This document shows, piece by piece, positions 40,981 to 64,000 of a stretch of 64,000 nucleotides of DNA. The notes under the pieces are model-generated. The model saw only the letters and a list, made by a program, of their open reading frames with translations. It made no database searches and was not told the origin of the DNA. Origin of the DNA: Malachius bipustulatus. Lineage: Eukaryota; Arthropoda; Insecta; Coleoptera; Melyridae. Each line of letters begins with the position of its first letter. The stretch's first letter is position 1. The translations under genes were made by a program, and so were the position numbers. The DNA is taken from assembly GCA_910589415.1 (NCBI GenBank), contig OU342637.1:39524162-39588161 (forward strand). The letters run 5' to 3'.

Positions 40981-43900
40981 AAAAAAACGTTTAGACTGAT
41001 TTTAATTTTGTCTAAGAATAATAATTATCGAATTTATTAATTTATACTACAAATTTTTTAAGTTTTTTATGTTTTATTGCAATTTTAAGTATTTTTTCAT
41101 GTCTAAGTGATCAAAGTTTTTAGATCTTGAAGATATTTTGTCCATTTTGAACATTTTAGTCCGAGATGACATAAATGTCAACTCATAATGATGATGATAC
41201 AGACGATTTATATGAAGATTATTTACCATTGAAATATCCTTCAGATGGGATTAATAAATCATTTTTGGAAAAAAACTTCACAGTCAATACTCAAGACAAA
41301 CTCGAAGCAGGTACATCCTCCTCAGGAAGAAAGGAACTTTCATTTACATGCAATGACTGCAATAAAATATTTAAAAATGAAAGAGGTTTACAGATTCACA
41401 ACAGTAGTAAGATACATAAGCATAATATATTGAATGAGAATTGCAAAGAAAATAAAATTGAACAGAAACTAACATCAACAAATTCGGATGCATATAACTG
41501 CGAGCACTGTAACAAAAGTTTCGGTTCAAAGCAAGGAGTATCTGTTCATATTGGTCGTGTACACAGCCAAGAAGCAAACTGTAACACAGTTAATAAGATT
41601 ATTAAACATAATAAGTTTCTAAGGTCTGCGACAAAACCGAATGAAGAAAATATTGAAAAATCAGAAAAGAACATAAATAATAATTTATTTGATAAGGAAA
41701 AAGCAGAATGGTTAAGAAAATTTAGAAGTTTTGAAAATGAATCAAGTATCAACTTAACTATATTTGATGAAGCAATAGATGAGTTTCTGAAATTTCTGTA
41801 TAAAGCAAATCAAACACTACCAGGTCCAGTTCATCCAGCAATCAAGAACTATAATCGTAGAAAGAGAAAACAATCTTCTATAAATGCTTCGAAAAATTCA
41901 ACTTCATCAAATCCACAACGTGTTGATAAGAACGTACGTCAGCGACGTCGTGATCAATACAACTACGAACGAGCACAATACTTATATTATAACCAGAGAA
42001 GAAAAGTTGTACGTCAAATTATGACATCAGGTAACGGAAAACAATGCAACATTAACCTGCCAATAATAGAAACTTATTTTCGTAATATATTTGAAAAGCC
42101 CAACAATAAAACAAAAACTGCAAACTACGAAAATATTGAGCAATACACTGATATAATTGTTACAACTGATGATGTTATTAAGGCAACAAAGAATATGAAA
42201 ATAGATACATCTGCTGGTATTGACCGTGTATTGATACGTACAGTTAAAGATTTACATATTAGCGAAATAATAGCATCCATCATAAATGCAATGTTGAACT
42301 CCTCATATGTTCCAAAATCATTTCGTATTGGTCGTACAGTTCTTATTCATAAAGGTGGTCTAGAGAAGGAATTATCAAATTGGCGTCCTATTACGATTTA
42401 TTCAATTATACGTCGAATTATTGAAAGAGTACTTGATAATAAGCTACGATCACAGGTGGACCTCAATAGTAATCAACGAGGATTTATTACAGGACTCGCT
42501 GGATGTCACGTTAATACCAAGATACAGAATGCTTGCTTAATAGATGCCGAAAAATACAAGCGAGATTGCGTTATTGCTTTTCTTGACGTTTCAAAGGCTT
42601 TTGATAATATTGGTCATATACACATAAATAATGCGATGAAGTCTCTTGGAATATCTAGAAACTTAACTAAAGTAATCATGAATCTGTTAACACAGAATGA
42701 AATTATTATTCAGTGTAATAACAAACGCACAAATAAAATCAAAATTAATAAAGGAGTTCCTCAGGGTGGACCGCTTTCTCCAATGTTATTCAATATTGCA
42801 ATAAATTTTATATATAATGAAATCTGTGACCCTAGCTTTGCAAATATCCATGGATATAGATTAGTTGAAGACCTAGACGCTGTATGTTTGACAGGATTTG
42901 CTGATGACCAAGCAATATCCTGTAAAAATGAAGAATCAGCACACTGTGTTATTAAACTGTTGACAGAATTACTAAATGAAATTGGTTTAAATATCAATTC
43001 ATCGAAGAGCTCTGCAATACATCTAAAAAATGGTATATTACACCCAGGAACATTAGACATTAAGGAGAATGAGTCAATTAAATGTATTGATGAAAATTCG
43101 AAGATTAAATATCTGGGATGTACTTTTACGAAGAAAATCGTTTTTGATCCAGATTTAATAAAAGTATTCAATGAAAATTTTGAAAAATTAAACAAAACAC
43201 ACCTATTGAAACCCAACCAAAAATTAAACGTTATTAACCAATATGTATTTCCAATGTTAAGTTATCCATTGCAATGTGCACCATTATCTGAAATTCCAAA
43301 TTATTTAACTGAGAATATAGACATTTTGATAAGAAGAACGGTCAAAGCAATAATTGGACTTCCTGCTTCAACAAATTCAGCAATGCTTTATTCGCCAAGA
43401 AATCTCCGAGGACTTGGTATTCTTAATATTAAATGGGAAACAAAATTACAGCATTTCTCTATTGCTCATAAATTAATGAACTATAACAACGAATTATTTA
43501 GTCGCAGCTTTAACTGCTTAGCTGAGATATCGTCCTGTCGAAAATTTATAAGTGATCTACTAGATAAATCTGATATATCGCAGACGGCTAAAACATCAAA
43601 AATTTTACGTCAAGAACTTAGATTAAATGAATATAGAAAATGGTGTAATATGGCCTTTCAAGGTGTTGGCGTGACTCATTTTCAAACATATAAAAAATTT
43701 AATAACTTCATATATAATAAAAATGCTTTTTCTTCATCGCAATGGACTGCAGCTATTAAACTTAATTGCAATTACGCAAATCTTCGTGGTGTTCCTGGAG
43801 TTACAACAGAATCGGACCTTTGCCGCAAATGCGGTAAGGAGAGAGAAACCCCCAGTCATGTTACCGGTTCCTGTACTTCAAACAACACGAAGATAATAGC

Positions 43901-44474
43901 GAGACATAATAGGCTAAAATTTAAAATTGCAGCTATTCTAAAAGAAAACCATTTTGATTGCTATGATGAAGTATATGCATATGACAGCGACGGCACAAAT
44001 CGTTTCGTGGATATTTTAGCTTTTGATAAGAACTCAAAAAAAGCTTTGATCGTAGACCCTACCATTCGATACGAAACAAATTCCAGTGAACAAGACAAGA
44101 CAGTTCGACAAGAAAAAGAAAATATCTACAGCAAATGTATACCTTATTTTCAAGAAAAATATTTAGATCTTTACGGCGAAAGAGAATGGAGTGTTCGAGG
44201 TTTATGGTTTGGATCTCGTGGCACAATTAATTCCAGTGTTATTAAATTTTTCGAAGACTTCAAATTTGACAAAACTTTACTTGGTCCCATAGCAGAATCC
44301 ATTTACTTAGATACTTTACATATTATTCATACACATATTTATACTTAATGTTACTTTATTTTCTTTACTTAATTTATTGTTACTCGTTAATTACTTTTCT
44401 ACTATTGTTGTATTGATTGTTATGCTGTGTTTTTAGCAACCTGTGATACACAGGCAGCACAACTTTAATTAAAG

Positions 44475-49008: not shown

Positions 49009-49031
49009 AATATATATATATATATATATAC
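49009..49031 (+). promoter_or_regulatory. TATA-type AT run upstream of the first small gene
   Basis: An AAAATATATATATATATATA tract in otherwise GC-richer sequence, about 35-60 bp before a CAGTTCT word (49067-49073) that is shared with the minus-strand gene at 49857-50147 and may be the initiator. The start codon follows 10 bp later. Confidence 0.45.
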
Positions 49032-49082
49032 AGCCGGCCAAATCGGTTTGCTCACCACTCACTCACCAGTTCTCGACAGAAG

Positions 49083-49301
49083 ATGAACACTGAAGATCTC
49101 GCGGAACTTAATACCCTCCGGAAGAACGTGCGAGTTAGAACTCTTCTCGTTCAACTTCAAAGGCTACTCATGGAGAAAGCAGACCTTTTTCAGATAGCAA
49201 GAGGAGGACTACCTCAATATATGAAAGTTATTGAGCGGATAAATTTAATCAACAAACAAATGGACCAGTATGAAGCGGAATTGGACTCGCTTCAAAGTTA
49301 G
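49083..49301 (+). CDS. Small helical protein, 72 aa, histone-type mRNA 3' end
   Basis: No known family recognised. The protein is two amphipathic charged helices (about 4-34 with NTLRKNVRVRTLLVQLQRLL, and 43-70 with VIERINLINKQMDQYEAELD) joined by a short linker with GGLP. It therefore probably forms a helical hairpin or coiled coil. There is no signal peptide or membrane segment. The start is the first ATG after a short leader. The stop is followed 32 nt later by a perfect histone-type stem-loop, with no need for a poly(A) signal. It faces the minus-strand gene at 49857-50147 tail to tail. It is not a histone: basic tails and a histone fold are absent. Cell-cycle-coupled expression is inferred from the 3' end only. 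Confidence 0.75.
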   Translation: MNTEDLAELNTLRKNVRVRTLLVQLQRLLMEKADLFQIARGGLPQYMKVIERINLINKQMDQYEAELDSLQS

Positions 49302-49333
49302 TCAGAGCCCATCTTGACATAAAATAAATATCC

Positions 49334-49349
49334 GGCCCTTTTCAGGGCC
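49334..49349 (+). terminator. Histone-type mRNA 3' stem-loop
   Basis: GGCCCTTTTCAGGGCC: a 6-bp stem with a TTTC loop, identical in form to the replication-dependent histone consensus bound by SLBP. It lies 32 nt after the stop codon. Confidence 0.9.
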
Positions 49350-49367
49350 ATTAATACTTAAAGACTT

Positions 49368-49375
49368 TTGGTTCT
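49368..49375 (+). promoter_or_regulatory. Possible histone downstream element, TTGGTTCT
   Basis: It begins 19 nt after the stem-loop. The same word, or its core TTGGTT, recurs at the same distance after three of the other four stem-loops, with a weaker form after the fifth. An AAAGA run sits just upstream (49360-49364). It may pair with the 5' end of this species' U7 snRNA. Confidence 0.5.
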
Positions 49376-49790
49376 CATAGCGCATTACTTCTTTTTTTAT
49401 TTAAATGATCATTATCTAGATTTTATTATATAAGTAGTTCAGAAGCAAAGGGGCCTTTGAGAAATCGTTGAGAGGACTTTTTAACAGCCAATTTTGTATA
49501 ATATACTTTTACCATACTACCTACGTGGTAATTATTTTTTTACTTTCCATGATACGAAATATAATATAAATTTATGCAATAATTGATAGTGATTGAATCG
49601 GTTTTGTCCTACGGTTAATTATCTATTTAAATAAAAATAAAAAGATGCCATTTAGGTATCAATAAACTAGAAATAGTTTAAGAAAAATAACTATTTGAGT
49701 AAAGTTTAAATTTATTAAACAATCTAAATCTTAATATTTTTCAAAATAATAAAACAACAAAATAGTTGTATAGACAAATCAAGCGTTTCA
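49376..49790. other. Convergent intergenic region, no gene
   Basis: AT-rich spacer between the 3' ends of two tail-to-tail small genes. No feature seen. Confidence 0.5.
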
Positions 49791-49798
49791 AGAACCAA
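49791..49798 (-). promoter_or_regulatory. Possible histone downstream element, TTGGTTCT
   Basis: On the minus strand, 20 nt after the stem-loop, identical over eight bases to the element of the gene at 49083-49301. Confidence 0.5.
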
Positions 49799-49818
49799 TG
49801 TGCTTATTAAAGTTTTTT

Positions 49819-49834
49819 GGCCCTGAAAAGGGCC
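49819..49834 (-). terminator. Histone-type mRNA 3' stem-loop
   Basis: The minus strand reads GGCCCTTTTCAGGGCC, perfect 6-bp stem and TTTC loop, 22 nt after the stop of the 96-codon gene. The A-rich context upstream (AAAATAAAACA) also suits histone 3' ends. Confidence 0.9.
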
Positions 49835-49856
49835 TGTTTTATTTTTGGAGAACATT

Positions 49857-50147
49857 TTATGCCGCTAGCAAATTCTCCAGATAATTGCTGGCTCGTCGTA
49901 GCCTTCTTCTAGAGATACGAATCAGGCGCTCGATTTTCCGTATGTCTTCACTAAGCTTTGAGACATGTGCTCTCATCTCCATTTCTTCAGTATGTTCTCC
50001 ATCAAGAATCTCTAGTAGCACTGAATAGTAAAGTTCGTATGTTAGAGAGTAGAGTCTCAAAAAATTATCGATTTCTTGTGATAGTCGACAAATTCTTAGG
50101 CGGTATTTCCTTATTCTTCTAACTAGACTCGGGCCTTCGCGCTCCAT
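49857..50147 (-). CDS. Small basic helical protein, 96 aa, histone-type mRNA 3' end
   Basis: No known family recognised. The protein is Arg/Leu/Glu-rich. A basic N-terminal helix (LVRRIRKYRLRICRLSQEI) leads to a Tyr-rich hydrophobic segment (LRLYSLTYELYYSVLLEIL), an acidic turn (DGEHTEEMEM) and a long basic helix (SKLSEDIRKIERLIRISRRR). This fits a helical hairpin that could bind nucleic acid or a partner; that is inference. The start is the only ATG near the promoter: a TATA box lies 57-65 bp upstream. The stop is TAA, and a perfect histone-type stem-loop follows after 22 nt. Tail to tail with the 72-codon gene. No intron is needed. A diverged relative of its neighbours in architecture, not obviously in sequence. 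Confidence 0.8.
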   Translation of the reverse strand: MEREGPSLVRRIRKYRLRICRLSQEIDNFLRLYSLTYELYYSVLLEILDGEHTEEMEMRAHVSKLSEDIRKIERLIRISRRRLRRASNYLENLLAA

Positions 50148-50203
50148 GGTGTTCTCGACGTGAAGTTTTTACAAGAACTGTAGATTTTGAGCTGATTCGT
50201 GGA

Positions 50204-50212
50204 CCTTTATAC
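50204..50212 (-). promoter_or_regulatory. TATA box GTATAAAGG
   Basis: Strong TATA box for the 96-codon gene. A CTACAGTTCTTG initiator-like word follows about 30 bp downstream, sharing CAGTTCT with the promoter of the gene at 49083. Confidence 0.75.
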
Positions 50213-51022
50213 ATGCCCTTTTCTCGCGGAGCTGATTATGGATCCCCCGTCTTTAATCCTTATCGGAAAACACTACCAGATTTCAGGTATAGTCAAATAC
50301 TTACTCGTGTTTTATAAATGAAACAAAATAATTTCTTTATTTAATGATAAAAGACATTTATTTTGATACCATCCACTTAAAAAGTTGTTTATTAGAAATA
50401 TTCTCAAAATAATGTTAAAATTACGAATCAGCACTAAAACTGCTTATACAGAGTGCACCATTTCGGTTAAATTAGAGAAAAGATTGCGGCCATCTCGAAT
50501 CCGTCAAGACATACAAGATATTTGTGACCGTTCCTGAAATATCCTGAAAAACTGAAAATTAGAGGTTTCTTATTTTTGCCATATCTTTGTTATTCTTGGA
50601 AATTAATAAATAATTTCCTATAGGCTTACATAAATCGCCAAGAGCTACCCATCTGTCATTACAAAAATTTTCAAGGCTGACTAGATCCAAGAGTTTTCAT
50701 AGTCAACTTTCGTTTTTTTTATGTCGTTCGATATGAAAAAAAATAATGGAAACCCAAAATTAATAAACCTACATTTTTTAAACATTTTTATTGTTCTTTT
50801 TCAAAGAAAACCGTAAAAAAATCGTCGAAATACGACATCTAGATAATTACTTCTAGGTATTAAATGAGATTTCTCAGAGACTGATTTCTGAATACGAAGC
50901 CCTCAGCGCGTGAGACCAAGTTGCACTTATTGTCTGTTCTTTTATAGCTCATTTGATTACTTATAACTACAGACAGTAACACAGTAAGCAGTATTGAGAC
51001 GTAATTTCAATGCATCTACGTT
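50213..51022. other. Spacer; left part of a segmental duplication
   Basis: AT-rich, no gene. From about 50488 it matches the segment beginning at about 53770 (shared word CGAATCCGTC, then GACATACAAGATA, GTGACCGTTCCTGAAATATC). Confidence 0.5.
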
Positions 51023-51028
51023 AACCAA
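51023..51028 (-). promoter_or_regulatory. Possible histone downstream element, TTGGTT core
   Basis: Begins 18 nt after the stem-loop on the minus strand, within ACAATTGGTTAACG. Confidence 0.45.
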
Positions 51029-51045
51029 TTGTCGAAAATATTTTT

Positions 51046-51061
51046 GGCCCTGAAAAGGACC
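51046..51061 (-). terminator. Histone-type 3' stem-loop with one G-U pair
   Basis: The minus strand reads GGTCCTTTTCAGGGCC: six pairs, one of them U-G, loop TTTC. It is 31 nt after the stop of the frameshifted gene. The duplicate at 54219 has the fully Watson-Crick form. Confidence 0.8.
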
Positions 51062-51092
51062 GGTATTTTTCAAGTTTTATGATGAGAAGAAA

Positions 51093-51301
51093 TTAGTATT
51101 CAACGGTCGAGTCCATCCAACTTTGGAGAACTCGCCTCAATTCAATGTTTTTACTCTCCAAGGTTATGTTCAGCATTGCCAGTTTTCTGTAGTCGATCCT
51201 TACACTCGAAGAAGTTCTGTCCTCTTTTCGTCAGTTTCCTCAATCATGGACTCCAGCTCTCCTATTGTTCGGATTACTTTTTGAACCTTAAGCTCTTCCA
51301 T
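51093..51301 (-). pseudogene. Small coiled-coil gene, frameshifted
   Basis: From the ATG at 51301 the frame reads MEELKVQKVIRTIGELESMI and continues charged and helical to EKRTELLRV, where it meets a stop. Shifting by one base recovers a second helical stretch (SVRIDYRKLAMLNI, then SKNIELRRVLQSW) ending at TAA 51093. The total of 209 bp is one base short of a multiple of three, and the duplicate at 54266 shows how the junction reads when in frame (LLRRV). It was therefore a protein of about 70 codons with the same two-helix architecture as its neighbours. A TTTAAAAG TATA-like word lies upstream (near 51380). The 3' stem-loop is preserved. Confidence 0.75.
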
Positions 51302-51790
51302 AATATAACCTCTTCGAACGTGATTGACCACCTTGGCTGGTGTTGAAAAAGTGACGATTATTTCCTGTTTCCAGTCTTTTAAACTTATGCCGTAGCGCCT
51401 AATGGTCCTCCCCTATTTTTAGAATGTTTTAACGCTCCTTGCATCGCTTTGAGCAATGGAATGAAAACAAAGAAATCATTCAAGCTCTGTTTGAGAGAGT
51501 TGCTTTTTAAATTCAAAAACCATAAAAATATTTTTGAATTGTCAGAAAACATTGTCAAGAAGTTAAAGTAAAAATAAAACTTTTATTTGTTTCCAATGAT
51601 TATTCATCTTGGTTTTTCAAAATCTTTTAAATTAGCAGGAATCGTATTTTCAAGGGTTTTAAATATTTTTGTGTTTTTGTATATTTAAACTACAATATTA
51701 GTGATAGATGACTGTAAATTATTGATTCTCTATATAAAAAGATACCAATGAAACACTTATATAGTAATCTAGAATTTTAATTATTTCACG

Positions 51791-52291
51791 TGAATAGAAA
51801 GTTATAATGATTTAAGCGCATTTTATAATAAATATAAGTACCACTACTAAACACGGTTTCGCCAAATTTTTTTTCACAAATTTTGTTTATAGTTGTGAAT
51901 TATTGGATAGAAGTTAAACAAAAAGTGATGGCTGAAAACTTGTCTTTCAACTTAAAGTCCCAGATACCAAAATTGTCAGTACCTATAGTCTCCAATAATA
52001 AATCGTTAATGATAATAATTGTGACGTAAAAGTAATATATTTTAGGAACCTTCTAATGAAAGTAGCATACAAAGATCCGACTTTAAACTATCAATTTTTA
52101 GGTTCGATAATTATTGGGGCTCTAATCAATTTTTTATTGCATAAGCTATAGCAAGTATGTATAATGTATAATATACCAATAATAAAACGGCATTATGCAA
52201 ACAAAATTGGTATCAATTGAAAAAATAAAATTATGTCTAAAAAATCTGTAGATGAACAGAACTTTTCATTGTTCTTCTTTTTAATTGTTAG
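51791..52291. other. Spacer, no gene
   Basis: AT-rich, between the duplication and the next small gene; nothing recognised. Confidence 0.45.
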
Positions 52292-52299
52292 CAAGACCT
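52292..52299 (-). promoter_or_regulatory. Weak downstream-element-like word AGGTCTTG
   Basis: In the minus-strand context ATTAGGTCTTGC, about 24 nt after the stem-loop, it resembles TTGGTTCTTG of the 96-codon gene but is not identical. Confidence 0.3.
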
Positions 52300-52323
52300 A
52301 ATTATATCTGTTATAATTTTGTT

Positions 52324-52339
52324 GGCCCTAAAAAAGGCC
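52324..52339 (-). terminator. Histone-like 3' stem-loop, TTTT loop
   Basis: The minus strand reads GGCCTTTTTTAGGGCC: six pairs including one U-G, loop TTTT instead of TTTC. It is 23 nt after the stop. A variant of the family signal. Confidence 0.75.
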
Positions 52340-52362
52340 GGTTTTTGTATAAAACTTCTAAT

Positions 52363-52617
52363 TTAAGACATGTCCTCTTTTGTCTTCGTGTCATTTTTCA
52401 ATCTCGCCTTAACTTTATTCAACTCGGACAGCTCTTGTTGAAATCGCTCTTTCCCCTTCTTGTGCATTGTCTCGATCATGAAAAGTTTCCAGAGATTAAC
52501 ATCTTTGTCGGAGTTCATCAACGTCGCTTTCTTTTCCAAAGTTGATTCTAAGTTGCGAATACTGAAATTCACGGCGTTGCACGTGGCGAGAGCTCCTCTC
52601 TTCTCTCCGATCTTCAT
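52363..52617 (-). CDS. Small helical protein, 84 aa, histone-like mRNA 3' end
   Basis: No known family recognised. I use the ATG at 52617, the first on the transcript; the frame is open slightly further upstream but without an ATG. The protein is Lys/Glu-rich. An N-terminal segment (MKIGEKRGALATCNAV) is followed by a helix (NFSIRNLESTLEKKATLMN), a linker (DKDVNLWKLFMIE) and a long charged helix (KGKERFQQELSELNKVKARL) with heptad-like Leu spacing, so a coiled coil is likely. It has a textbook TATA box upstream and a histone-like stem-loop 23 nt after the stop. No signal peptide, membrane segment or intron. It sits between the two copies of the segmental duplication but is not part of it. Confidence 0.75.
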   Translation of the reverse strand: MKIGEKRGALATCNAVNFSIRNLESTLEKKATLMNSDKDVNLWKLFMIETMHKKGKERFQQELSELNKVKARLKNDTKTKEDMS

Positions 52618-52698
52618 TGTTTTTATATTCAAAGAAGTACTGCGGTGGTTAACAGATCAGGTATATTGGAGAAGTGATTCGATTTCCCAGTTATGAGC

Positions 52699-52708
52699 CT
52701 TTTATAGC
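52699..52708 (-). promoter_or_regulatory. TATA box CTATAAAAGG
   Basis: Perfect TATA match 82-91 bp upstream of the 84-codon gene. An AATCACTTC initiator-like word lies about 30 bp downstream. Confidence 0.8.
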
Positions 52709-52908
52709 TTACCTAACTAAGAGCTCGTCTTCGTGGGCCCTTCTGGAACTGTGTGTGCAGTTCTTTCTCCAGCGGCTCTCCAAAATCGACTTTGGTGGTT
52801 TACAGCTGACAGATGATCGCGTCGATTGCGACGAAACTTTGCATTTTTGGAAGAGCAATTTCTTGACTGCACGTCGATATCTTTGTGATGTTCCCCCTAC
52901 CTAAGCAG

Positions 52909-53769
52909 CCAAAGTTATAGTAAAATATGTGCGCGCGATACAATTTACCATTCAAAATGTTCACGATTTCCGAGTGTTACCACCCGGCCTTCGGCTAGGT
53001 GGCCCATACTGAAGGGGCCCTGTTGGCGATACAGGCGCAAGACGTTTCATCTTCCGTCCTGCGCCAGGATCGTCAGCATAAATGCATAGATCCGATTTCC
53101 CTGCTCGCGCTCTCTGATTGGCTGACTGCCTTCGCCAATGAGAGAGCGTTGATCATCAACGCCAACCGAGTGTCATTATCGCCGACCAAATACTATATAA
53201 CCGGCCTGCCAAGTAATGCCACACACTCTTTTTCTCCGTCCAGCGGTGGCTTAAGCCGTTCGGACTTCAATTTGCGTTTCTCAGCCGACTCCAGGCTTCT
53301 TATTTCTTACCTTCTTTTCCCCGGGTCTCTCGACTTTACTATCGTCAACTTTCATCATCTTAGCCAACTCCCAGGCCCTCTCTCATTCTCATACTCCTTT
53401 ACCTACATTCCGTCTCAACCTCTCCTCGCCTACACTATAATTTCCTCCCCACAAAACTTTCTCGCTCCTAACCCGAACGTTAATCCCATCTCAGATATTC
53501 CTTTCCTTTCCCGAACAAAAATACAAACGAACAGCTCAGCGTCCTCGAACGCTGGCCCCACAGACTCGGGTCAGTTCGAGGGCAACGTCGCCGACAGCGT
53601 GCCGCCGTAGCGTGTACGCTCCGTGACCACGCCCACTGCCCCGTCGGCCAATCACGGGCCTCCCTGACTGCCGCTTGTTCGTCCGAGCGATCACCAGGAC
53701 CATCAACCAGCCGAGTATCAACGGTTGCCTGGGGATTCCATACGTCGCACTGCCGAGCTTCGACGCTTG
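52909..53769. other. GC-rich island with promoter-like features, no supported gene
   Basis: Much GC-richer than its surroundings and C/T-rich on the plus strand. It contains CCAAT-type words (GATTGGCTG at 53118, GGCCAATCACG near 53647), a TATATAA at 53194-53200 and a long pyrimidine-rich leader-like stretch. The long plus frame at 52999-53610 lacks an ATG start and looks compositional. It ends exactly where segmental copy 2 begins. It may be an LTR of another retroelement or a host promoter; neither is proven. Confidence 0.35.
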
Positions 53770-54193
53770 GCCATATCGAATCCGTCTCGAAGACATACAA
53801 GATAGATGTGACCGTTCCTGAAATATCCTGAAAAAACTGAAAAATCAAGATTTCTTATTTTTGCCAACTTTCGTTTTTCTTATTGCCGCCGTATTATTTT
53901 TTTATGTCGTTCGATATGAAAAAAATTAATAAACTTGAAAAAAAATTCTTAAATTTTTATTCCAAAAGAAAAACCTAAAAAAATTCGTCGAAATACGACA
54001 TCTAGATAATTACATCTAGGTACTAAATGAGATTTCTCAGAGACCGATTTCTGAATACGAAGCCCTCAGCACGTGAGACCAAGTTACACTTATTGTGTGT
54101 TCTTTTATACCTTATTTGATTACCTACTTATTTATAACTACAGACAGTAACTCGGTGAGTAGTATTGAGACGTAATTTCAATGCATCTACGTT

Positions 54194-54199
54194 AACCAA
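54194..54199 (-). promoter_or_regulatory. Possible histone downstream element, TTGGTT core
   Basis: Begins 20 nt after the stem-loop, in AAATTGGTTAACG; conserved with the copy at 51023. Confidence 0.45.
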
Positions 54200-54218
54200 T
54201 TTTGTCGAAAATATTTTT

Positions 54219-54234
54219 GGCCCTGAAAAGGGCC
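54219..54234 (-). terminator. Histone-type mRNA 3' stem-loop
   Basis: The minus strand reads GGCCCTTTTCAGGGCC, perfect form, 31 nt after the stop of the 38-codon gene. Confidence 0.9.
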
Positions 54235-54265
54235 GGTATTTTTCAAGTTTTATGATGAGAAGAAA

Positions 54266-54382
54266 TTAGTATTCAACGGTTACACGACGAAGAAGCTCTG
54301 TCCCCTTTTCGTCAGTTTCCTCAATCATGGACTCCAGCTCTCGTATTGCTCGGATTACTTTTTGAACCTTAAGCTCTTCCAT
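54266..54382 (-). CDS. Shortened small helical protein, 38 aa
   Basis: Duplicate of the gene at 51093-51301. It reads MEELKVQKVIRAIRELESMI at the start and ends LLRRVTVEY. An internal in-frame deletion of about 100 bp has removed the second helix but kept the frame and the original stop. One helix of about 30 charged residues remains. The promoter (TATAAAAG at 54461-54468) and the 3' stem-loop are intact, so the unit could still be transcribed. Whether so short a product works is unknown; it may be a decaying copy. Confidence 0.55.
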   Translation of the reverse strand: MEELKVQKVIRAIRELESMIEETDEKGTELLRRVTVEY

Positions 54383-54460
54383 ATTATAACCTCTTCGAAC
54401 GTGAATGACCACTTTGGCTGCTGGAGGTTGAAAAAGTGGCGATTATTTCCTGTTTCCATT

Positions 54461-54468
54461 CTTTTATA
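54461..54468 (-). promoter_or_regulatory. TATA box TATAAAAG
   Basis: Upstream of the 38-codon gene. The duplicate copy near 51380 has the weaker TTTAAAAG, so this copy has the better box although its gene is shortened. Confidence 0.75.
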
Positions 54469-55431: not shown

Positions 55432-56734
55432 TATTGCATGTCGGATAATTTGAGACTTGGGATTAGGTATTTAAAACCGCACTGTTGCCAATTCTGAATT
55501 TTTTTAGGATCGCGTAGAAGATACTGTCCCAGAAAATTATTTCAAAATTGATGCCGATTCAGATTCACGATGCAGCGCAAAGTGGATTTTCGGTTGATTT
55601 GAAGTAATCGAGCAACTCGCGCCATGAAATTAGGTATTTAAGACCGCACTGTTGCCAATTCTGAATTTTTTTACGATCGCGCAGATGATTCTGCCACAGA
55701 AAATTATTTCAAAATTGATGCCGATTGAGATCCACGATGCTGCGCAAAGTGGATTTTCGGTTGATTTGAAGTCATCGAGCAACTCGCGCCATGAAATAAG
55801 GTATTTAAGACCGCACTGTTGCCAATTCTGTTAATGTTTTTGCGATCGCGTCGAAGATCCTGTCACAGAAAATTATTTCGAAATTGATGCTGATTCAGAT
55901 TCACGATGCAACGCAAAATGGATTTTCGGTTGATTTGAAGTAATCGAGCAACTCGCGCCATGAAATTAGGTATTTAAGACCGTACTCTTGCCAATACTGG
56001 AAATATTTTTGCGATCGCGCAGATGATTCTGTCACAGAAAATTATTTCAAAATTGATGCCGATTGAGATCCACGATGCAGCGCAAAGTGGATTTTCGGTT
56101 GATTTGAAGTAATCGAGCAACTCGCGCCATGAAATTAGGTATTTAAGACCGCACTTTGCCAATTCTGTTAATATTTTTGCGATCGCGTCGAAGATCCTGT
56201 CACAGAAAATTATTTCGAAATTGATGCCGATTGAGATCCCCGATGCAGCGCAAAGTGGATTTTCGGTTGATTTGAAGTAATCGAGCAACTCGCGCCATGA
56301 AATTAGGTATTTAAGACCGCACTCTTGCCAATACTGAAAATATTTTTGCGATCGCGCAGATGATTCTGTCACAGAAAATTATTTCAAAATTGATGCCGAT
56401 TGAGATCCACGATGCAGCGCAAAGTGGATTTTCGGTTGATTTGAAGTAATCGAGCAACTCGCGCTATGAAATCAGGTATTTAAGACCGCACTGTTGCCAA
56501 TACTGAAAATATTTTTGCGATCGCGCCGAAGATCCTGTCACAGAAAATTATTTCAAAATTAATGCCGATTCAGATTCACGATGCAGCGCAAAGTGGATTT
56601 TCGGTTGATTTGAAGTCATCGAGCAGCTCGCGCCATGAATTAAGGTATTTAAGACCACACTGTTGCCAATACTGAAAATATTTTTGCGATCGCGCCGAAG
56701 ATCCTGTCACAGAAAATTATTTCAAAATTGATGG

Positions 56735-58290
56735 CGATTCAGATTCACGATGCAGCGCAAAGTGGATTTTCGGTTGATTTGAAGTCACCGAGCAACTCGC
56801 GCCATGAAATTAGGTATTTAAGACCACACTGTTGCCAATTCTGAATTTTTTTACGATCACGCAGATGATTCTGTCACAGAAAATTATTTCAAAATTGATG
56901 CTGATTGAGATCCACGATGCTGCGCAAAGTGGATTTTCGGTTGATTTGAAGTAATCGAGCAACTCGCGCCATGAAATAAGGTATTTAAGACCGCACTGTT
57001 GCCAATACTGAAAATATTTTTGCGATCGCGCCGAAGATCCTGTCACAGAAAATTATTTCAAAATTAATGCCGATTCAAATTCAAGATGCTGCGCAAAGTG
57101 GATTTTCGGTTGATTTGAAGTAATCGAGCAACTCGCGCCATGAAATTAGGTATTTAAGACCGCACTGTTGCCAATTCTGTTAATGTTTTTGCGATCGCGT
57201 AGAAGATCCTGTCACAGAAAATTATTTCAAAATTGATGGCGATTAAGATTCACGATGCAGCGCAAAGTGGATTTTCGGTTGATTTGAAGTCACCGAGCAG
57301 CTCGCGCCATGAAATAAGGTATTTAAGACCGCACTGTTGCCCGTTCTGTTAATATTTTTGCGATCGCGTCGAAGATCCTGTCACAGAAAATTATTTCGAA
57401 ATTGATGCCGATTGAGATCCCCGATGCAGCGCAAAGTGGATTTTCGGTTGATTTGAAGTCACCGAGCAACTCGCGCCATGAAATTAGGTATTTAAGACCA
57501 CACTGTTGCCAATTCTGAATTTTTTTACGATCACGCAGATGATTCTGTCACAGAAAATTATTTCAAAATTGATGCCGACTTAGATCCACGATGCTGCGCA
57601 AAGTGGATTTTCGGTTGATTTGAAGTCATCGAGCAACTCGCGCCATGAAATTAGGTATTTAAGACCACACTGTTGCCAATTCTGAATTTTTTTACGATCA
57701 CGCAGATGATTCTGTCAAGAAAATTATTTCAAAATTGATGCTGATTGAGATCCACGATGCTGCGCAAAGTGGATTTTCGGTTGATTTGAAGTCATCGAGC
57801 AACTCGCGCCATGAAATAAAGTATTTAAGACCACACTGTTGCCAATTCTGAATTTTTTTACGATCACGCAGATGATTCTGTCACAGAAAATTATTTCAAA
57901 ATTGATGCGGATTGAGATCGCGGATGCAGCGCAAAGTGGATTTTCGGTTGATTTGAAGTAATCGAGCAACTCGCGCCATGAAATTAGGTATTTAAGACCG
58001 CACTGTTGCCAATTCTGATTTGTTTTACGATCGCGCAGATGATTCTGTCACAGAAAATTATTGCAAAATTGATGCCGATTGAGATCCATTATGCAGCGCA
58101 AAGTGGATTTTCGGTTGATTTGAAGTAATCGAGCAACTCGCGCCATGAAATCAGGTATTTAAGACCGCACTGTTGCCAATTCTGTTAATATTTTTGCGAT
58201 CGCGTCGAAGATCCTGTCACAAAAAATTATTTCGAAATTGATGCCGATTCAGATTCACGATGCAGCGCAAAGTGGATTTTCGGTTGATTT
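56735..58290. repeat. Nine-monomer satellite block, copy 1
   Basis: Nearly identical to 61772-63327 at an offset of 5037 bp, including a private two-base deletion (TGTCAAGAAAATT near 57715 and 62752). Neighbouring monomers are more diverged, so this is a recent local duplication or gene-conversion event. Confidence 0.85.
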
Positions 58291-58910
58291 GAAGTCATCG
58301 AGCAGCTCGCGCCATGAAATAAGGTATTTAAGACCGCACTGTTGCCAATACTGAAAATATTTTTGCGATCGCGCCGAAGATCCTGTCACAGAAAATTATT
58401 TCAAAATTAATGCCGATTCAGATTCACGATGCAGCGCAAAGTGGATTTTCGGTTGATTTGAAGTAATCGAGCAACTCGCGCCATGAAATTAGGTATTTAA
58501 GACCGCACTGTTGCCAATTCTGTTAATATTTTTGCGATCGCGTCGAAGATCCTGTCACAGAAAATTATTTCAAAATTGATGGCGATTCAGATTCACGATG
58601 CAGCGCAAAGTGGATTTTCGGTTGATTTGAAGTCACCGAGCAACTCGCGCCATGAAATTAGGTATTTAAGACCACACTGTTGCCAATTCTGAATTTTTTT
58701 ACGATCGCGCAGATGATTCTGTCACAGAAAATTATTTAAAAATTGATGCCGATTTAGATCCACGATGCTGCGCAAAGTGGATTTTCGGTTGATTTGAAGT
58801 CATCGAGCAACTCGCGCCATGAAATAATTATTTAAGACCACACTGTTGCCAATTCTGAATTTTTTTACGATCGCGCAGATGATTCTGTCACAGAAAATTA
58901 TTTCAAAATT

Positions 58911-59575
58911 GATGCCGACTTACATCCACGATGCTGCGCAAAGTGGATTTTCGGTTGATTTGAAGTCATAGAGCAACTCGCGCCATGAAATAAGGTATTT
59001 AAGACCGCACTGTTGCCAATACTGAAAATATTTTTGTGATCGCGCCGAAGATCCTGTCACAGATAATTATTTCAAAATTGATGGCGATTTAGATTCACGA
59101 TGCAGCGCAAAGTGGATTTTCGATTAATTTGAAGTCATCGAGCAACTCGCGCCATGAAATAATTATTTAAGACCGCACTGTTGCCAATTCTGAAAATATT
59201 TTTGCGATCGCGCCGAAGATCCTGTCACAGAAAATTATTTCGAAATTGATGGCGATTCAGATTCACGATGCAGCGCAAAGTGGATTTTCGGTTGATTTGC
59301 AGTCACCGAGCAACTCGCGCCATGAAATTAGGTATTTAAGACCGCACTGTTGCCAATTCTGAATTTTTTTACGATCGCGCAGATGATTCTGTCACAGAAA
59401 ATTATTTAAAAATTGATGCCGATTTAGATCCACGATGCTGCGCAAAGTGGATTTTCGGTTGATTTGAAGTCATCGAGCAACTCGCGCCATGAAATAAGGT
59501 ATTTAAGACTGCACTGTTGCCAATTCTGTTAATATTTTTGCGATCGCGCCGAAGATCCTGTCACAGAAAATTATT
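58911..59575. repeat. Satellite sub-block repeated 1847 bp downstream
   Basis: It shares rare variants with about 60758-61422 (GCCGACTTACATCC, AGTCATAGAGC, CACAGATAATTATTTC, GATTTGCAGTCACC). The offset of 1847 bp equals about 11 monomers. Confidence 0.8.
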
Positions 59576-61771
59576 TCGAAATTGATGCCGATTCAGATTC
59601 ACGATGCAGCGCAAAGTGGATTTTCGGTTGATTTGAAGTAATCGAGCAACTCGCGCCATGAAATTAGGTATTTAAGACGCACTGTTGCCAATTCTGTTAA
59701 TATTTTTGCGATCGCGTCGAAGATCCTGTCACAGAAAATTATTTCAAAATTGATGGCGATTCAGATTCACGATGCAGCGCAAAGTGGATTTTCGGTTGAT
59801 TTGAAGTCACCGAGCAACTCGCGCCATGAAATTAGGTATTTAAGACCACACTGTTGCCAATTCTGAATTTTTTTACGATCGCGCAGATGATTCTGTCACG
59901 GAAAATTATTTAAAAATTGATGCCGATTTAGATCCACGATGCTGCGCAAAGTGGATTTTCGGTTGATTTGAAGTCATCGAGCAACTCGCGCCATGAAATA
60001 AGGTATTTAAGACTGCACTGTTGCCAATTCTGTTAATATTTTTGCGATCGCGCCGAAGATCCTGTCACAGAAAATTATTTCGAAATTGATGCCGATTCAG
60101 ATTCACGATGCAGAGCAAAGTGGATTTTCGGTTGATTTGAAGTCATCGAGCAACTCGCGCCATGAAATAATTATTTAAGACCGCACTGTTGCCAATTCTG
60201 AATTTTTTTACGATCGCCCAGATGATTCTGCCACAGAAAATTATTTCAAAATTGATGCCGATTGAGATCCACGATGCTGCGCAAAGTGGATTTTCGGTTG
60301 ATTTGAAGTCATCAAGCAACTCGCGCCATGAAATAAGGTATTTAAGACCGCACTGTTGCCAATACTGAAAATATTTTTGCGATCGCGCCGAAGATCCTGT
60401 AACAGAAAATTATTTCAAAGTTAATGCCGATTCAAATTCACGATGCAGCGCAAAGTGGATTGTCGGTTGATTTGAACCCATCGGATAATTTGAGCCTTGA
60501 GATTAGGTATTTAAGACCGCACTGTTGCCAATTCTGTTAATATTTTTGCGATCACGCCGAAGATCCTGTCACAGAAAATTATTTCGAAATGGATGCCGAT
60601 TCAGATTCACGATGCAGCGCAAAGTGGATTTTCGGTTGATTTGAAGTCATCGAGCAACTCGCGCCATGAAATAATTATTTAAGACCACACTGTTGCCAAT
60701 TCTGAATTTTTTTACGATCGCGCAGATGATTCTGTCACAGAAAATTATTTAAAAATTGATGCCGACTTACATCCACGATGCTGCGCAAAGTGGATTTTCG
60801 GTTGATTTGAAGTCATAGAGCAACTCGCGCCATGAAATAAGGTATTTAAGACCGCACTGTTGCCAATACTGAAAATATTTTTGTGATCGCGCCGAAGATC
60901 CTGTCACAGATAATTATTTCAAAATTGATGGCGATTTAGATTCACGATGCAGCGCAAAGTGGATTTTCGGTTGATTTGAAGTCATCGAGCAACTCGCGCC
61001 ATGAAATAATTATTTAAGACCGCACTGTTGCCAATTCTGAAAATATTTTTGCGATCGCGCCGAAGATCCTGTCACAGAAAATTATTTCGAAATTGATGGC
61101 GATTCAGATTCACGATGCAGCGCAAAGTGGATTTTCGGTTGATTTGCAGTCACCGAGCAACTCGCGCCATGAAATTAGGTATTTAAGACCGCACTGTTGC
61201 CAATTCTGAATTTTTTTACGATCGCGCAGATGATTCTGTCACAGAAAATTATTTAAAAATTGATGCCGATTTAGATCCACGATGCTGCGCAAAGTGGATT
61301 TTCGGTTGATTTGAAGTCATCGAGCAACTCGCGCCATGAAATAAGGTATTTAAGACTGCACTGTTGCCAATTCTGTTAATATTTTTGCGATCGCGCCGAA
61401 GATCCTGTCACAGAAAATCATTTCATAATTGATGGCGATTCAGATTCACGATGCAGCGCAAAGTGGATTTTCGGTTGATTTGAAGTCACCGAGCAACTCG
61501 CGCCATGAAATTAGGTATTTAAGACCACACTGTTGCCAATTCTGAATTTTTTTACGATCGCGCAGATGATTCTGTCACAGAAAATTATTTAAAAATTGAT
61601 GCCGATTTAGATCCACGATGCTGCGCAAAGTGGATTTTCGGTTGATTTGAAGTCATCGAGCAACTCGCGTCATGAAATAAGGTATTTAAGACTGCACTGT
61701 TGCCAATTCTGTTAATATTTTTGCGATCGCGCCGAAGATCCTGTCACAGAAAATTATTTCAAAATTGATGC

Positions 61772-63327
61772 CGATTCAGATTCACGATGCAGCGCAAAGT
61801 GGATTTTCGGTTGATTTGAAGTCACCGAGCAACTCGCGCCATGAAATTAGGTATTTAAGACCACACTGTTGCCAATTCTGAATTTTTTTACGATCACGCA
61901 GATGATTCTGTCACAGAAAATTATTTCAAAATTGATGCTGATTGAGATCCACGATGCTGCGCAAAGTGGATTTTCGGTTGATTTGAAGTAATCGAGCAAC
62001 TCGCGCCATGAAATAAGGTATTTAAGACCGCACTGTTGCCAATACTGAAAATATTTTTGCGATCGCGCCGAAGATCCTGTCACAGAAAATTATTTCAAAA
62101 TTAATGCCGATTCAAATTCAAGATGCTGCGCAAAGTGGATTTTCGGTTGATTTGAAGTAATCGAGCAACTCGCGCCATGAAATTAGGTATTTAAGACCGC
62201 ACTGTTGCCAATTCTGTTAATGTTTTTGCGATCGCGTAGAAGATCCTGTCACAGAAAATTATTTCAAAATTGATGGCGATTAAGATTCACGATGCAGCGC
62301 AAAGTGGATTTTCGGTTGATTTGAAGTCACCGAGCAGCTCGCGCCATGAAATAAGGTATTTAAGACCGCACTGTTGCCCGTTCTGTTAATATTTTTGCGA
62401 TCGCGTCGAAGATCCTGTCACAGAAAATTATTTCGAAATTGATGCCGATTGAGATCCCCGATGCAGCGCAAAGTGGATTTTCGGTTGATTTGAAGTCACC
62501 GAGCAACTCGCGCCATGAAATTAGGTATTTAAGACCACACTGTTGCCAATTCTGAATTTTTTTACGATCACGCAGATGATTCTGTCACAGAAAATTATTT
62601 CAAAATTGATGCCGACTTAGATCCACGATGCTGCGCAAAGTGGATTTTCGGTTGATTTGAAGTCATCGAGCAACTCGCGCCATGAAATTAGGTATTTAAG
62701 ACCACACTGTTGCCAATTCTGAATTTTTTTACGATCACGCAGATGATTCTGTCAAGAAAATTATTTCAAAATTGATGCTGATTGAGATCCACGATGCTGC
62801 GCAAAGTGGATTTTCGGTTGATTTGAAGTCATCGAGCAACTCGCGCCATGAAATAAAGTATTTAAGACCACACTGTTGCCAATTCTGAATTTTTTTACGA
62901 TCACGCAGATGATTCTGTCACAGAAAATTATTTCAAAATTGATGCGGATTGAGATCGCGGATGCAGCGCAAAGTGGATTTTCGGTTGATTTGAAGTAATC
63001 GAGCAACTCGCGCCATGAAATTAGGTATTTAAGACCGCACTGTTGCCAATTCTGATTTGTTTTACGATCGCGCAGATGATTCTGTCACAGAAAATTATTG
63101 CAAAATTGATGCCGATTGAGATCCATTATGCAGCGCAAAGTGGATTTTCGGTTGATTTGAAGTAATCGAGCAACTCGCGCCATGAAATTAGGTATTTAAG
63201 ACCGCACTGTTGCCAATTCTGTTAATATTTTTGCGATCGCGTCGAAGATCCTGTCACAAAAAATTATTTCGAAATTGATGCCGATTCAGATTCACGATGC
63301 AGCGCAAAGTGGATTTTCGGTTGATTT
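61772..63327. repeat. Nine-monomer satellite block, copy 2
   Basis: Partner of 56735-58290. The match ends at the right where one copy reads GATTTGAAGTCATC and the other GATTTTTAAATCATC. Confidence 0.85.
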
Positions 63328-64000
63328 TTAAATCATCGAGCAACTCGCGCCATGAAATAAGGTATTTAAGACCGCACTGTTGCCAATACTGAAAATATTT
63401 TTGCGATCGCGCCGAAGATCCTGTCACAGAAAATTATTTCAAAATTAATGCCGATTCAGATTCACGATGCAGCGCAAAGTGGATTTTAGGTTGATTTGAA
63501 GTCATCGAGCAGCTCGCGCCATGAAATAAGGTATTTAAGACCGCACTGTTGCCAATACTGAAAATATTTTTGCGATCGCGCCGAAGATCCTGTCACAGAA
63601 AATTATTTCAAAATTAATGCCGATTCAGATTCACGATGCAGCGCAAAGTGGATTTTCGGTTGATTTGAAGTAATCGAGCAACTCGCGCCATGAAATCAGG
63701 TATTTAAGACCGCACTATTGCCAATTCTGTTAATATTTTTGCGATCGCGTCGAAGATCCTGTCACAGAAAATTATTTCGAAATTGATGCCGATCCAGATT
63801 CACGATGCAGCGCAAACTGGATTTTCGGTTGATTTTTAAGTCATCGAGCAACTCGCGCCATGAAATAAGGTATTTAAGACCGCACTGTTGCCAATACTGA
63901 AAATATTTTTGCGATCGCGCCGAAGATCCTGTCACAGAAAATTATTTCGAAATTGATGCCGATTCAGATTCACGATGCAGCGCAAAGTGGATTTTCGGTT

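What the first reader, a model, noticed from the sequence alone, without database searches (positions are those of the whole stretch)
49009..54468. Cluster of small non-histone genes whose mRNAs end in histone-type stem-loops
Seen: five units in 5.5 kb, each with a short ATG-started frame (or a broken copy of one) and, 22-32 nt after the stop, a 16-nt stem-loop. Three stem-loops are exactly GGCCCTTTTCAGGGCC and two are one-wobble variants. Known: this 6-bp stem with TTTC loop is the SLBP-binding signal of replication-dependent histone mRNAs, which end without poly(A) in metazoans, and use of it by other protein genes is very rare. Inference: these are S-phase or early-embryo or germline-coupled mRNAs for a small helical protein family, possibly chromatin- or cell-division-related. 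The proteins (72, 96, 84, about 70 and 38 codons) do not look like histones. I know of no described family of this kind.
Basis: partly seen in the sequence, partly recalled or inferred. Interest (0 to 1): 0.95.

Follow-up and report, generated by a model that had tools for sequence, protein, structure and literature searches.

The report
Non-histone gene arrays with histone-type ends
An animal genome carries clusters and long tandem arrays of small genes that are not histones, yet their messages appear to end with the special hairpin thought to be used only by histone genes, which hints at an undescribed second set of proteins made in step with DNA copying.

Summary
In detail: five histone-type stem-loops, the only strict ones in 64 kb, each 22-32 nt after a stop codon; three intact frames (72, 96, 84 codons) and two broken copies. 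The genome strengthens it. The window's genes belong to a block repeated on contig C14. A U2 paralogue (about 44% identical, dN/dS 0.14-0.18 where measurable) forms a tandem array of 39 matches. A 76-codon gene with the same kind of 3' end forms a ~330-kb array on C7: 282 candidates, 150 best scored, all full length and open. The exact stem-loop occurs 305 times, the reversed control 0. The host's histone genes score similarly for the stem-loop, and H4 shares a downstream element with U1 at the same spacing. No protein has a Pfam family above cut-off; two are modelled as helical hairpins; none looks like a histone. Best reading: SLBP/U7-processed, probably non-polyadenylated mRNAs of fast-evolving small proteins, multiplied like histone genes. 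RNA 3' ends, SLBP binding, timing and function are untested. A dispersed, apparently transposase-coding repeat also carries such a stem-loop. Of the papers seen in part, one calls histone mRNA the only such animal mRNA.

The parts
49010..49031 (+). U1: TATA-like alternating run 5' of the gene
   Evidence: sequence
49083..49301 (+). U1 ORF, 72 codons; near-identical open copies in other C14 blocks
   Evidence: two helices predicted, mean pLDDT 80.8
49334..49349 (+). U1 histone-type stem-loop GGCCCTTTTCAGGGCC
   Evidence: 29.1 bits
49360..49375 (+). U1 downstream element AAAGACTTTTGGTTCT; its first 11 nt equal a stretch of the host H4 tail at nearly the same distance from the stem-loop (10 and 11 nt)
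49857..50147 (-). U2 ORF, 96 codons; modelled as a helical hairpin; 54 genome matches
   Evidence: (mean pLDDT 92.3)
49819..49834 (-). U2 histone-type stem-loop GGCCCTTTTCAGGGCC
   Evidence: 31.9 bits
49793..49798 (-). U2 downstream TTGGTT, 20 nt after the stem-loop
50205..50211 (-). U2 TATA box (TATAAAG), initiator-like CAGTT about 31 nt later
51093..51301 (-). U3: degenerate copy, frameshifted (33 codons, then another frame); open copies of 69 codons (L077) and, in a longer frame, 93 codons (L075) exist elsewhere on C14
51046..51061 (-). U3 stem-loop GGTCCTTTTCAGGGCC (one G-T wobble)
   Evidence: 23.5 bits
52363..52617 (-). U4 ORF, 84 codons
52324..52339 (-). U4 stem-loop GGCCTTTTTTAGGGCC (one G-T wobble)
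   Evidence: 24.1 bits
52700..52706 (-). U4 TATA box (TATAAAA), initiator-like CACTT about 31 nt later
54266..54382 (-). U5: duplicate of U3 with part of the frame lost, 38 codons open
54219..54234 (-). U5 stem-loop GGCCCTTTTCAGGGCC
   Evidence: 32.9 bits
54194..54199 (-). U5 downstream TTGGTT, 19 nt after the stem-loop
54462..54468 (-). U5 TATA box (TATAAAA), initiator-like CACTT about 31 nt later

Best explanation
These are compact genes laid out like replication-dependent histone genes at their 3' ends: a 60-100 codon frame, a short 3' UTR, a histone-type stem-loop and a downstream element, mostly behind a TATA box and initiator. The pre-mRNA is most likely bound by SLBP and cut a few nucleotides after the stem-loop by the U7 snRNP machinery, giving non-polyadenylated mRNAs that rise with DNA replication or are stocked for early embryos. 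The proteins are probably small alpha-helical hairpins, several of them strongly basic. They evolve fast and are multiplied in repeated blocks and two long tandem arrays, as histone genes are, which suggests a need for large amounts in short bursts. SHOWN: anatomy, chance levels, copy number, selection on U2 at long range, similarity of 3' ends to the host's histone genes. INFERRED: SLBP/U7 processing, no poly(A), no introns, replication-linked expression, structural or chromatin-related role.
For: Five Histone3 matches and no others in 64 kb up to E = 10; random expectation 0.015-0.024. Exact stem-loop 305 times in 544 Mb, reversed control 0. Frames just upstream. TATA plus initiator pair at U2, U4 and U5, found in 133 of 12,740 random 300-nt stretches. 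TTGGTT at 18, 20 and 19 nt after the stem-loop in U1, U2 and U5: any shared 6-mer this coherent in 0.07% (whole window) to 0.17% (local) of random triples. TTGGTT also lies 24 nt after the stem-loop in 25 of 28 C7 copies read. U1 shares AAAGACTTTTG with host H4 at offset 10 against 11 (a word of 11 or more in 2 of 1000 random sets). Rfam bits: host histones 28.5-35.1 (6 of 7 strict stem-loops listed), small genes outside the window 31.8-37.5. U2 is modelled as a hairpin without an alignment, pLDDT 92.3. dN/dS 0.14, 0.16 and 0.18 for U2 against three U2-like copies. Arrays: 39 U2-like matches, 31 without inner stops; C7 150 of 150 scored copies full length and open.
Against: No RNA data. Window units score below Rfam's cut-off. 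U1 and U2 have AATAAA starting 11 and 9 nt before the stem-loop, so polyadenylation is possible there. In 28 recent C7 copies nonsynonymous to synonymous changes are 15:4, as expected without selection, and 2 of 28 have inner stops. Close U1 and U2 copies give noisy dN/dS from 0.27 to 2.78, and two U2-like copies 0.73. No U7 RNA was found, but the model rang in no control genome either. U4 lacks the exact TTGGTT. Of the 23 GGCCCTTTTCAGGGCCAV places 13 have a frame of 59 codons or more ending within 40 nt; 7 of the other 10 are short or broken copies on C14, and 3 (C2, C4, C13) show no convincing gene. TATA boxes are no histone trait here: only 1 of 4 host core histone upstream stretches has one.
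Confidence: 0.78

Rival explanations
1. Mixed or ordinary 3' ends: the mRNAs are polyadenylated from AATAAA just before the stem-loop, with the TTGGTT element acting as a GU-rich downstream element; the stem-loop is a relic or a switch used in some cells only.
For: AATAAA starts 11 and 9 nt before the stem-loop in U1 and U2, against 12% of local 45-nt stretches holding a poly(A) hexamer; U2 and U4 also have one 103 and 39 nt downstream. Histone genes with both kinds of signal exist, including human H4 with the signal before the stem-loop (PMC9756948, passages seen).
Against: U3, U4 and U5 have no such hexamer in the 45 nt before the stem-loop. Stem-loop and tail are kept while frames decay: one substitution in 118 aligned columns of U3/U5, reached by 62 of 5000 permutations (seven of the 70 substitutions there lie at a poorly aligned deletion edge). 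The U1 element matches the host H4 tail.
Confidence: 0.12
2. Satellite-like or selfish amplification: the arrays and blocks are tandem DNA that happens to hold old genes; the proteins are no longer needed and the stem-loop is carried along.
For: Tandem arrays, a 169-bp satellite beside the window cluster, broken copies U3 and U5, 11 of 54 U2-type matches with inner stops, neutral-looking changes among recent C7 copies.
Against: Purifying selection between U2 and its distant paralogue (0.14-0.18) and between the C14 and C6 copies of that paralogue (0.15). 150 of 150 scored C7 copies open, though the best candidates were the ones scored.
Confidence: 0.1
3. Very diverged histones or histone-fold proteins.
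For: Same kind of 3' end and similar tandem organisation as the host's histone repeat.
Against: No clear similarity to the four core histones: lowest shuffle p 0.010 among 24 comparisons. No Pfam family above cut-off. U2 is modelled as two long helices, not the three-helix histone fold (the fold description of histones is recalled).
Confidence: 0.03
4. The genes were spread by a mobile element that carries a histone-type stem-loop.
For: A dispersed repeat with a transposase-like frame in this genome does carry one.
Against: A 21-nt string of that repeat's tail is absent from the window. The window genes have different tails and their frames show no transposase family. Copies of U2 lie on C14 and C6 in blocks or an array rather than dispersed.
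Confidence: 0.04

Closest known systems
Replication-dependent (canonical) histone genes of metazoans
   Same: 6-bp stem with 4-nt loop shortly after the stop (host core histones 51-65 nt, small genes 22-34 nt), a downstream element 10-25 nt later, tandem organisation; compared directly with the host's own repeat.
   Different: Proteins are not histones; several separate sequence families; TATA boxes in most small genes but in only 1 of 4 host core histone upstream stretches scanned.
C. elegans histone genes with a lineage-specific element after the hairpin
   Same: A short conserved motif (AATCC there, TTGGTT/AAAGACT here) at the position of a putative U7 site (PMC1924863, passages seen).
   Different: Different motif, loop TTTC or TTTT rather than CTTT, and non-histone genes.
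Dispersed repeat of this genome with a stem-loop after a transposase-like frame (called mariner-like by eye)
   Same: Histone-type stem-loop, in 8 of 14 loci 15 nt after the stop codon.
   Different: Dispersed, with a different tail; Pfam names no family for its 113-codon frame in L008.
Poly(A)-minus non-histone mRNAs of human cells (for example znf460, sesn3)
   Same: Non-histone transcripts enriched in poly(A)-minus RNA (PMC3188798, passages seen).
   Different: In the passages seen no histone-type stem-loop is given for them.

Membership tests
Replication-dependent histone gene | Histone 3' stem-loop (Rfam RF00032) | tested here: met
   Window 23.5-32.9 bits, cut-off 34 not reached. Relatives: L081 37.5, L062 34.6, L087 32.6-35.9 (3 of 5 over the cut-off), L077 31.8. 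Host histones 28.5-35.1 (1 of 6 over the cut-off). The stem-loop of the 77-codon gene in L087 was not listed
Replication-dependent histone gene | Downstream element for U7 10-25 nt after the stem-loop | tested here: inconclusive
   Element shared with host H4 and between units; the host U7 RNA was not found, uninformative search
Replication-dependent histone gene | Short open frame ending close before the stem-loop | tested here: met
   3 of 5 units in the window, 13 of 23 places, 8 of 9 close U2 copies on C14 without inner stop, 26 of 28 C7 copies read
Replication-dependent histone gene | Encodes a histone | tested here: not met
Replication-dependent histone gene | mRNA lacks poly(A), binds SLBP, peaks in S phase | not testable with these tools
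   no RNA data available
Mobile element carrying a stem-loop (dispersed repeat of this genome) | Shares that element's 3' tail and transposase-like frame | tested here: not met
   a 21-nt tail string is absent from the window; U1, U2 and U4 match no transposase family
Mobile element carrying a stem-loop (dispersed repeat of this genome) | Terminal repeats and target-site duplication around the unit | not tested

The most novel reading that the evidence does not exclude
Animals can have a second, non-histone class of replication-coupled genes: multi-copy families of small basic and acidic helical-hairpin proteins, made from stem-loop mRNAs in large amounts alongside histones, perhaps as abundant chromatin or spindle components of rapidly dividing embryos or germ cells.
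Probability: 0.45. Interest if true: 0.97.

Novelty: new variant of a known kind. Interest (0 to 1): 0.92.

Why it matters
A 2018 paper states that replication-dependent histone mRNA is the only known animal protein-coding mRNA ending in a stem-loop (PMC6303110, abstract sentence seen), and a 2009 paper that SLBP had never been implicated in directly regulating non-histone genes (PMC2781718, one passage seen). A gene set with hundreds of copies would break that rule. It would also give a natural test of what makes an mRNA replication-coupled, and might point to an unknown abundant chromosomal protein. Poly(A)-selected RNA-seq would be expected to miss such genes.

Tried and rejected

Tested and dropped: that the five window proteins are one sequence family (pairwise shuffles p 0.09 or more except U3/U5; C7 protein against U1 global p 0.012 and U2 local p 0.028, suggestive only). 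That purifying selection can be read from the C7 array: it cannot. That the promoters copy the host's histone promoters: TATA[AT]A was found in 1 of 4 host core histone upstream stretches.

Literature: ten searches showed me, in their listings, no report of non-histone animal genes with histone-type stem-loops. Passages of six papers were seen, no whole paper, and the library is open-access only.
Full report
OBSERVATION. The window holds five strict matches to the histone stem-loop pattern, all between 49334 and 54234 and none elsewhere in 64 kb. The Rfam scan of the whole window lists five Histone3 matches up to E = 10 and they are these five, all in the direction of the frames. Scores are 23.5-32.9 bits, under the curated cut-off of 34, so at 'gathering' 0 of 5 are reported. 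Markov models of the window expect 0.015-0.024 matches. The two stem differences between units each leave a G-T pair, and the loop is TTTC or TTTT.

GENE ANATOMY. Frames of 72 (U1), 96 (U2) and 84 codons (U4) end 32, 22 and 23 nt before their stem-loops. Of 24,960 background positions, 331 have a frame of 72 codons or more ending 10-60 nt upstream. U3 and U5 are a diverged duplicate pair; U3 is frameshifted and U5 has lost part of the frame. U2, U4 and U5 have TATAAAR followed about 31 nt later by an initiator-like CASTT; 3 of the 5 such pairs in the window are theirs, and 133 of 12,740 random 300-nt stretches hold one. U3 has a weaker TATA and U1 an alternating TA run. Codon-position bias of the three frames pooled is reached by 21 of 2000 random draws. 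U2 alone, without an alignment, is modelled as a helical hairpin with mean pLDDT 92.3, and U1 as two helices with 80.8. Introns were not tested for; each frame is simply open.

A SHARED DOWNSTREAM ELEMENT. TTGGTT lies 18, 20 and 19 nt after the stem-loop in U1, U2 and U5, whose tails are otherwise different; in random triples a shared 6-mer so placed occurs in 0.07-0.17%. U4 has TTAGGTC a little later. U3 and U5 keep stop, stem-loop and tail with one substitution in 118 aligned columns, and that one keeps the pair; 62 of 5000 permutations do as well.

WHOLE GENOME. The window lies in a 544-Mb assembly of 52 contigs. The degenerate pattern has 786 matches against 289 for the reversed pattern; of the first 30 places read, all on C1, 14 belong to a dispersed repeat and none to the window's genes. 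The exact GGCCCTTTTCAGGGCC has 305 matches against 0. Of the 100 places listed for it, 98 are on C7 in a tandem array with about 978-bp steps. The copies shown encode a 76-codon protein ending 30 nt before the stem-loop. Of 28 copies read, 26 are open, 25 have TTGGTT 24 nt after the stem-loop, and 26 have a TATA motif within 140 nt of the ATG. A protein search gave 282 candidates, of which 150 were scored; all 150 are full length and open, from 6,069,700 to 6,400,052. The scored ones are the best candidates, so this is not a random sample.

REPEATED BLOCKS AND A SECOND ARRAY. GGCCCTTTTCAGGGCCAV has 23 places, reversed control 0. Three (C2, C4, C13) have no convincing gene. The other 20 are on C14: 23.27 Mb (1), 27.58-27.64 Mb (11) and 39.57-39.67 Mb (8, two of them in the window). 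Of all 23, 13 have a frame of 59 codons or more ending within 40 nt of the stem-loop; the other C14 ones are short or broken. The last two clusters are copies of the window's block with U1, U2 and U3 relatives, plus a further basic protein (U6, 59 codons, pI 11.9); U4 relatives were seen only at 39.67 Mb (L086). A protein search with U2 gave 54 matches: 9 close copies on C14 (one with a stop), 3 diverged copies on C6 (two with stops), one U2-like copy on C6, 2 partial ones on C14, and an array of 39 U2-like matches at C14:23.27-23.33 Mb, 31 of them without inner stops. U2 against U2-like copies gives dN/dS 0.14, 0.16 and 0.18 with saturated dS, and in a fourth comparison dS cannot be computed. 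The C14 and C6 U2-like copies give 0.15, and two C14 array copies 0.73. U2 against the C6 copy at 7.5 Mb, whose end differs, gives 0.38; close copies give noisy values of 0.27-2.78. The C7 array shows no such signal (15:4 against 545:139 possible changes).

THE HOST'S OWN HISTONES. One fetched stretch of the histone repeat on C2 holds H4 (twice), H2B, H2A and H3 frames, each followed by a stem-loop; two more stem-loops there have no frame shown upstream: one lies about 1 kb from an edge with no histone frame seen, the other has the H2A stem-loop and tail and is cut by the edge of the stretch. Rfam scores in that stretch are 28.5-35.1 for 6 of 7 stem-loops, against 34.6 for the C7 array, 32.6-35.9 for the U2-like array, 31.8 for a U3 copy and 37.5 for U6. 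The H4 tail AAAGACTTTTG recurs in U1 at offset 10 against 11, reached by 2 of 1000 random sets; the other small genes share only shorter words with the histone tails. So the small genes and the host's histones share the stem-loop, and at least U1 shares the downstream element.

NOT HISTONES. Lowest shuffle p 0.010 among 24 comparisons with core histones, no core histone match in the window, no Pfam family above cut-off, and the U2 model is a two-helix hairpin.

MECHANISM. Most likely SLBP binds the stem-loop and U7 snRNP the downstream element, and the RNA is cut between them. That step, the absence of poly(A) and the timing are inferred from the signals. U1 and U2 also have AATAAA before the stem-loop, so dual processing as in some human histone genes (PMC9756948, passages) is possible. 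A lineage-specific downstream motif has a precedent in C. elegans histone genes (PMC1924863, passages). The proteins' role is unknown; high copy number and helical hairpins suggest an abundant structural or chromosomal partner, which is a guess.

NOVELTY. One paper calls histone mRNA the only known animal protein-coding mRNA with this end (PMC6303110, abstract sentence); another says SLBP was never implicated in directly regulating other genes (PMC2781718, passage). The listings of ten paper searches showed no counterpart, in an open-access library only. The 3'-end machinery would be a known one, so I rate this a new variant of a known kind; the protein families have no known relatives that I could search for.

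Noticed in passing
L002, L003, L006, L008-L010, L014, L017, L022, L023, L026, L027, L029, L030 (position 1501): A dispersed repeat, by eye a mariner-like DNA transposon, carries a histone-type stem-loop (GGTCCTTTTCAGGACC in 11 of 14), in 8 of these 14 loci 15 nt after the end of a transposase-like frame; 12 of the 14 share an exact tail string and match a reference copy at 84-100% (reference included). Pfam names no family for the 113-codon frame of L008. A replication-coupled transposase mRNA would be new.
   Followed up: partly
window 55462-64000: A 169-bp satellite array of about 51 copies runs from just beside the cluster to the window end.
   Followed up: no
window 50946 and 54109, - strand: A further TATAAARG lies about 100-110 nt downstream of the U3 and U5 stem-loops in the same direction, in both duplicates.
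   Followed up: no
L087:3779-4057: A 77-codon gene (MAEERSKIYN...) with stem-loop GGCCCTTTTAAGGGCC lies just before the U2-like array; no Pfam match.
   Followed up: partly
L064, L065, L066: Single exact stem-loops on C2, C4 and C13 without a convincing frame; L066 has two stem-loops in a row 35 nt apart.
   Followed up: no
window 41175-44348, +: A 1057-codon open frame with reverse transcriptase and C2H2 zinc-finger matches; non-LTR retrotransposon type is my reading.
   Followed up: no
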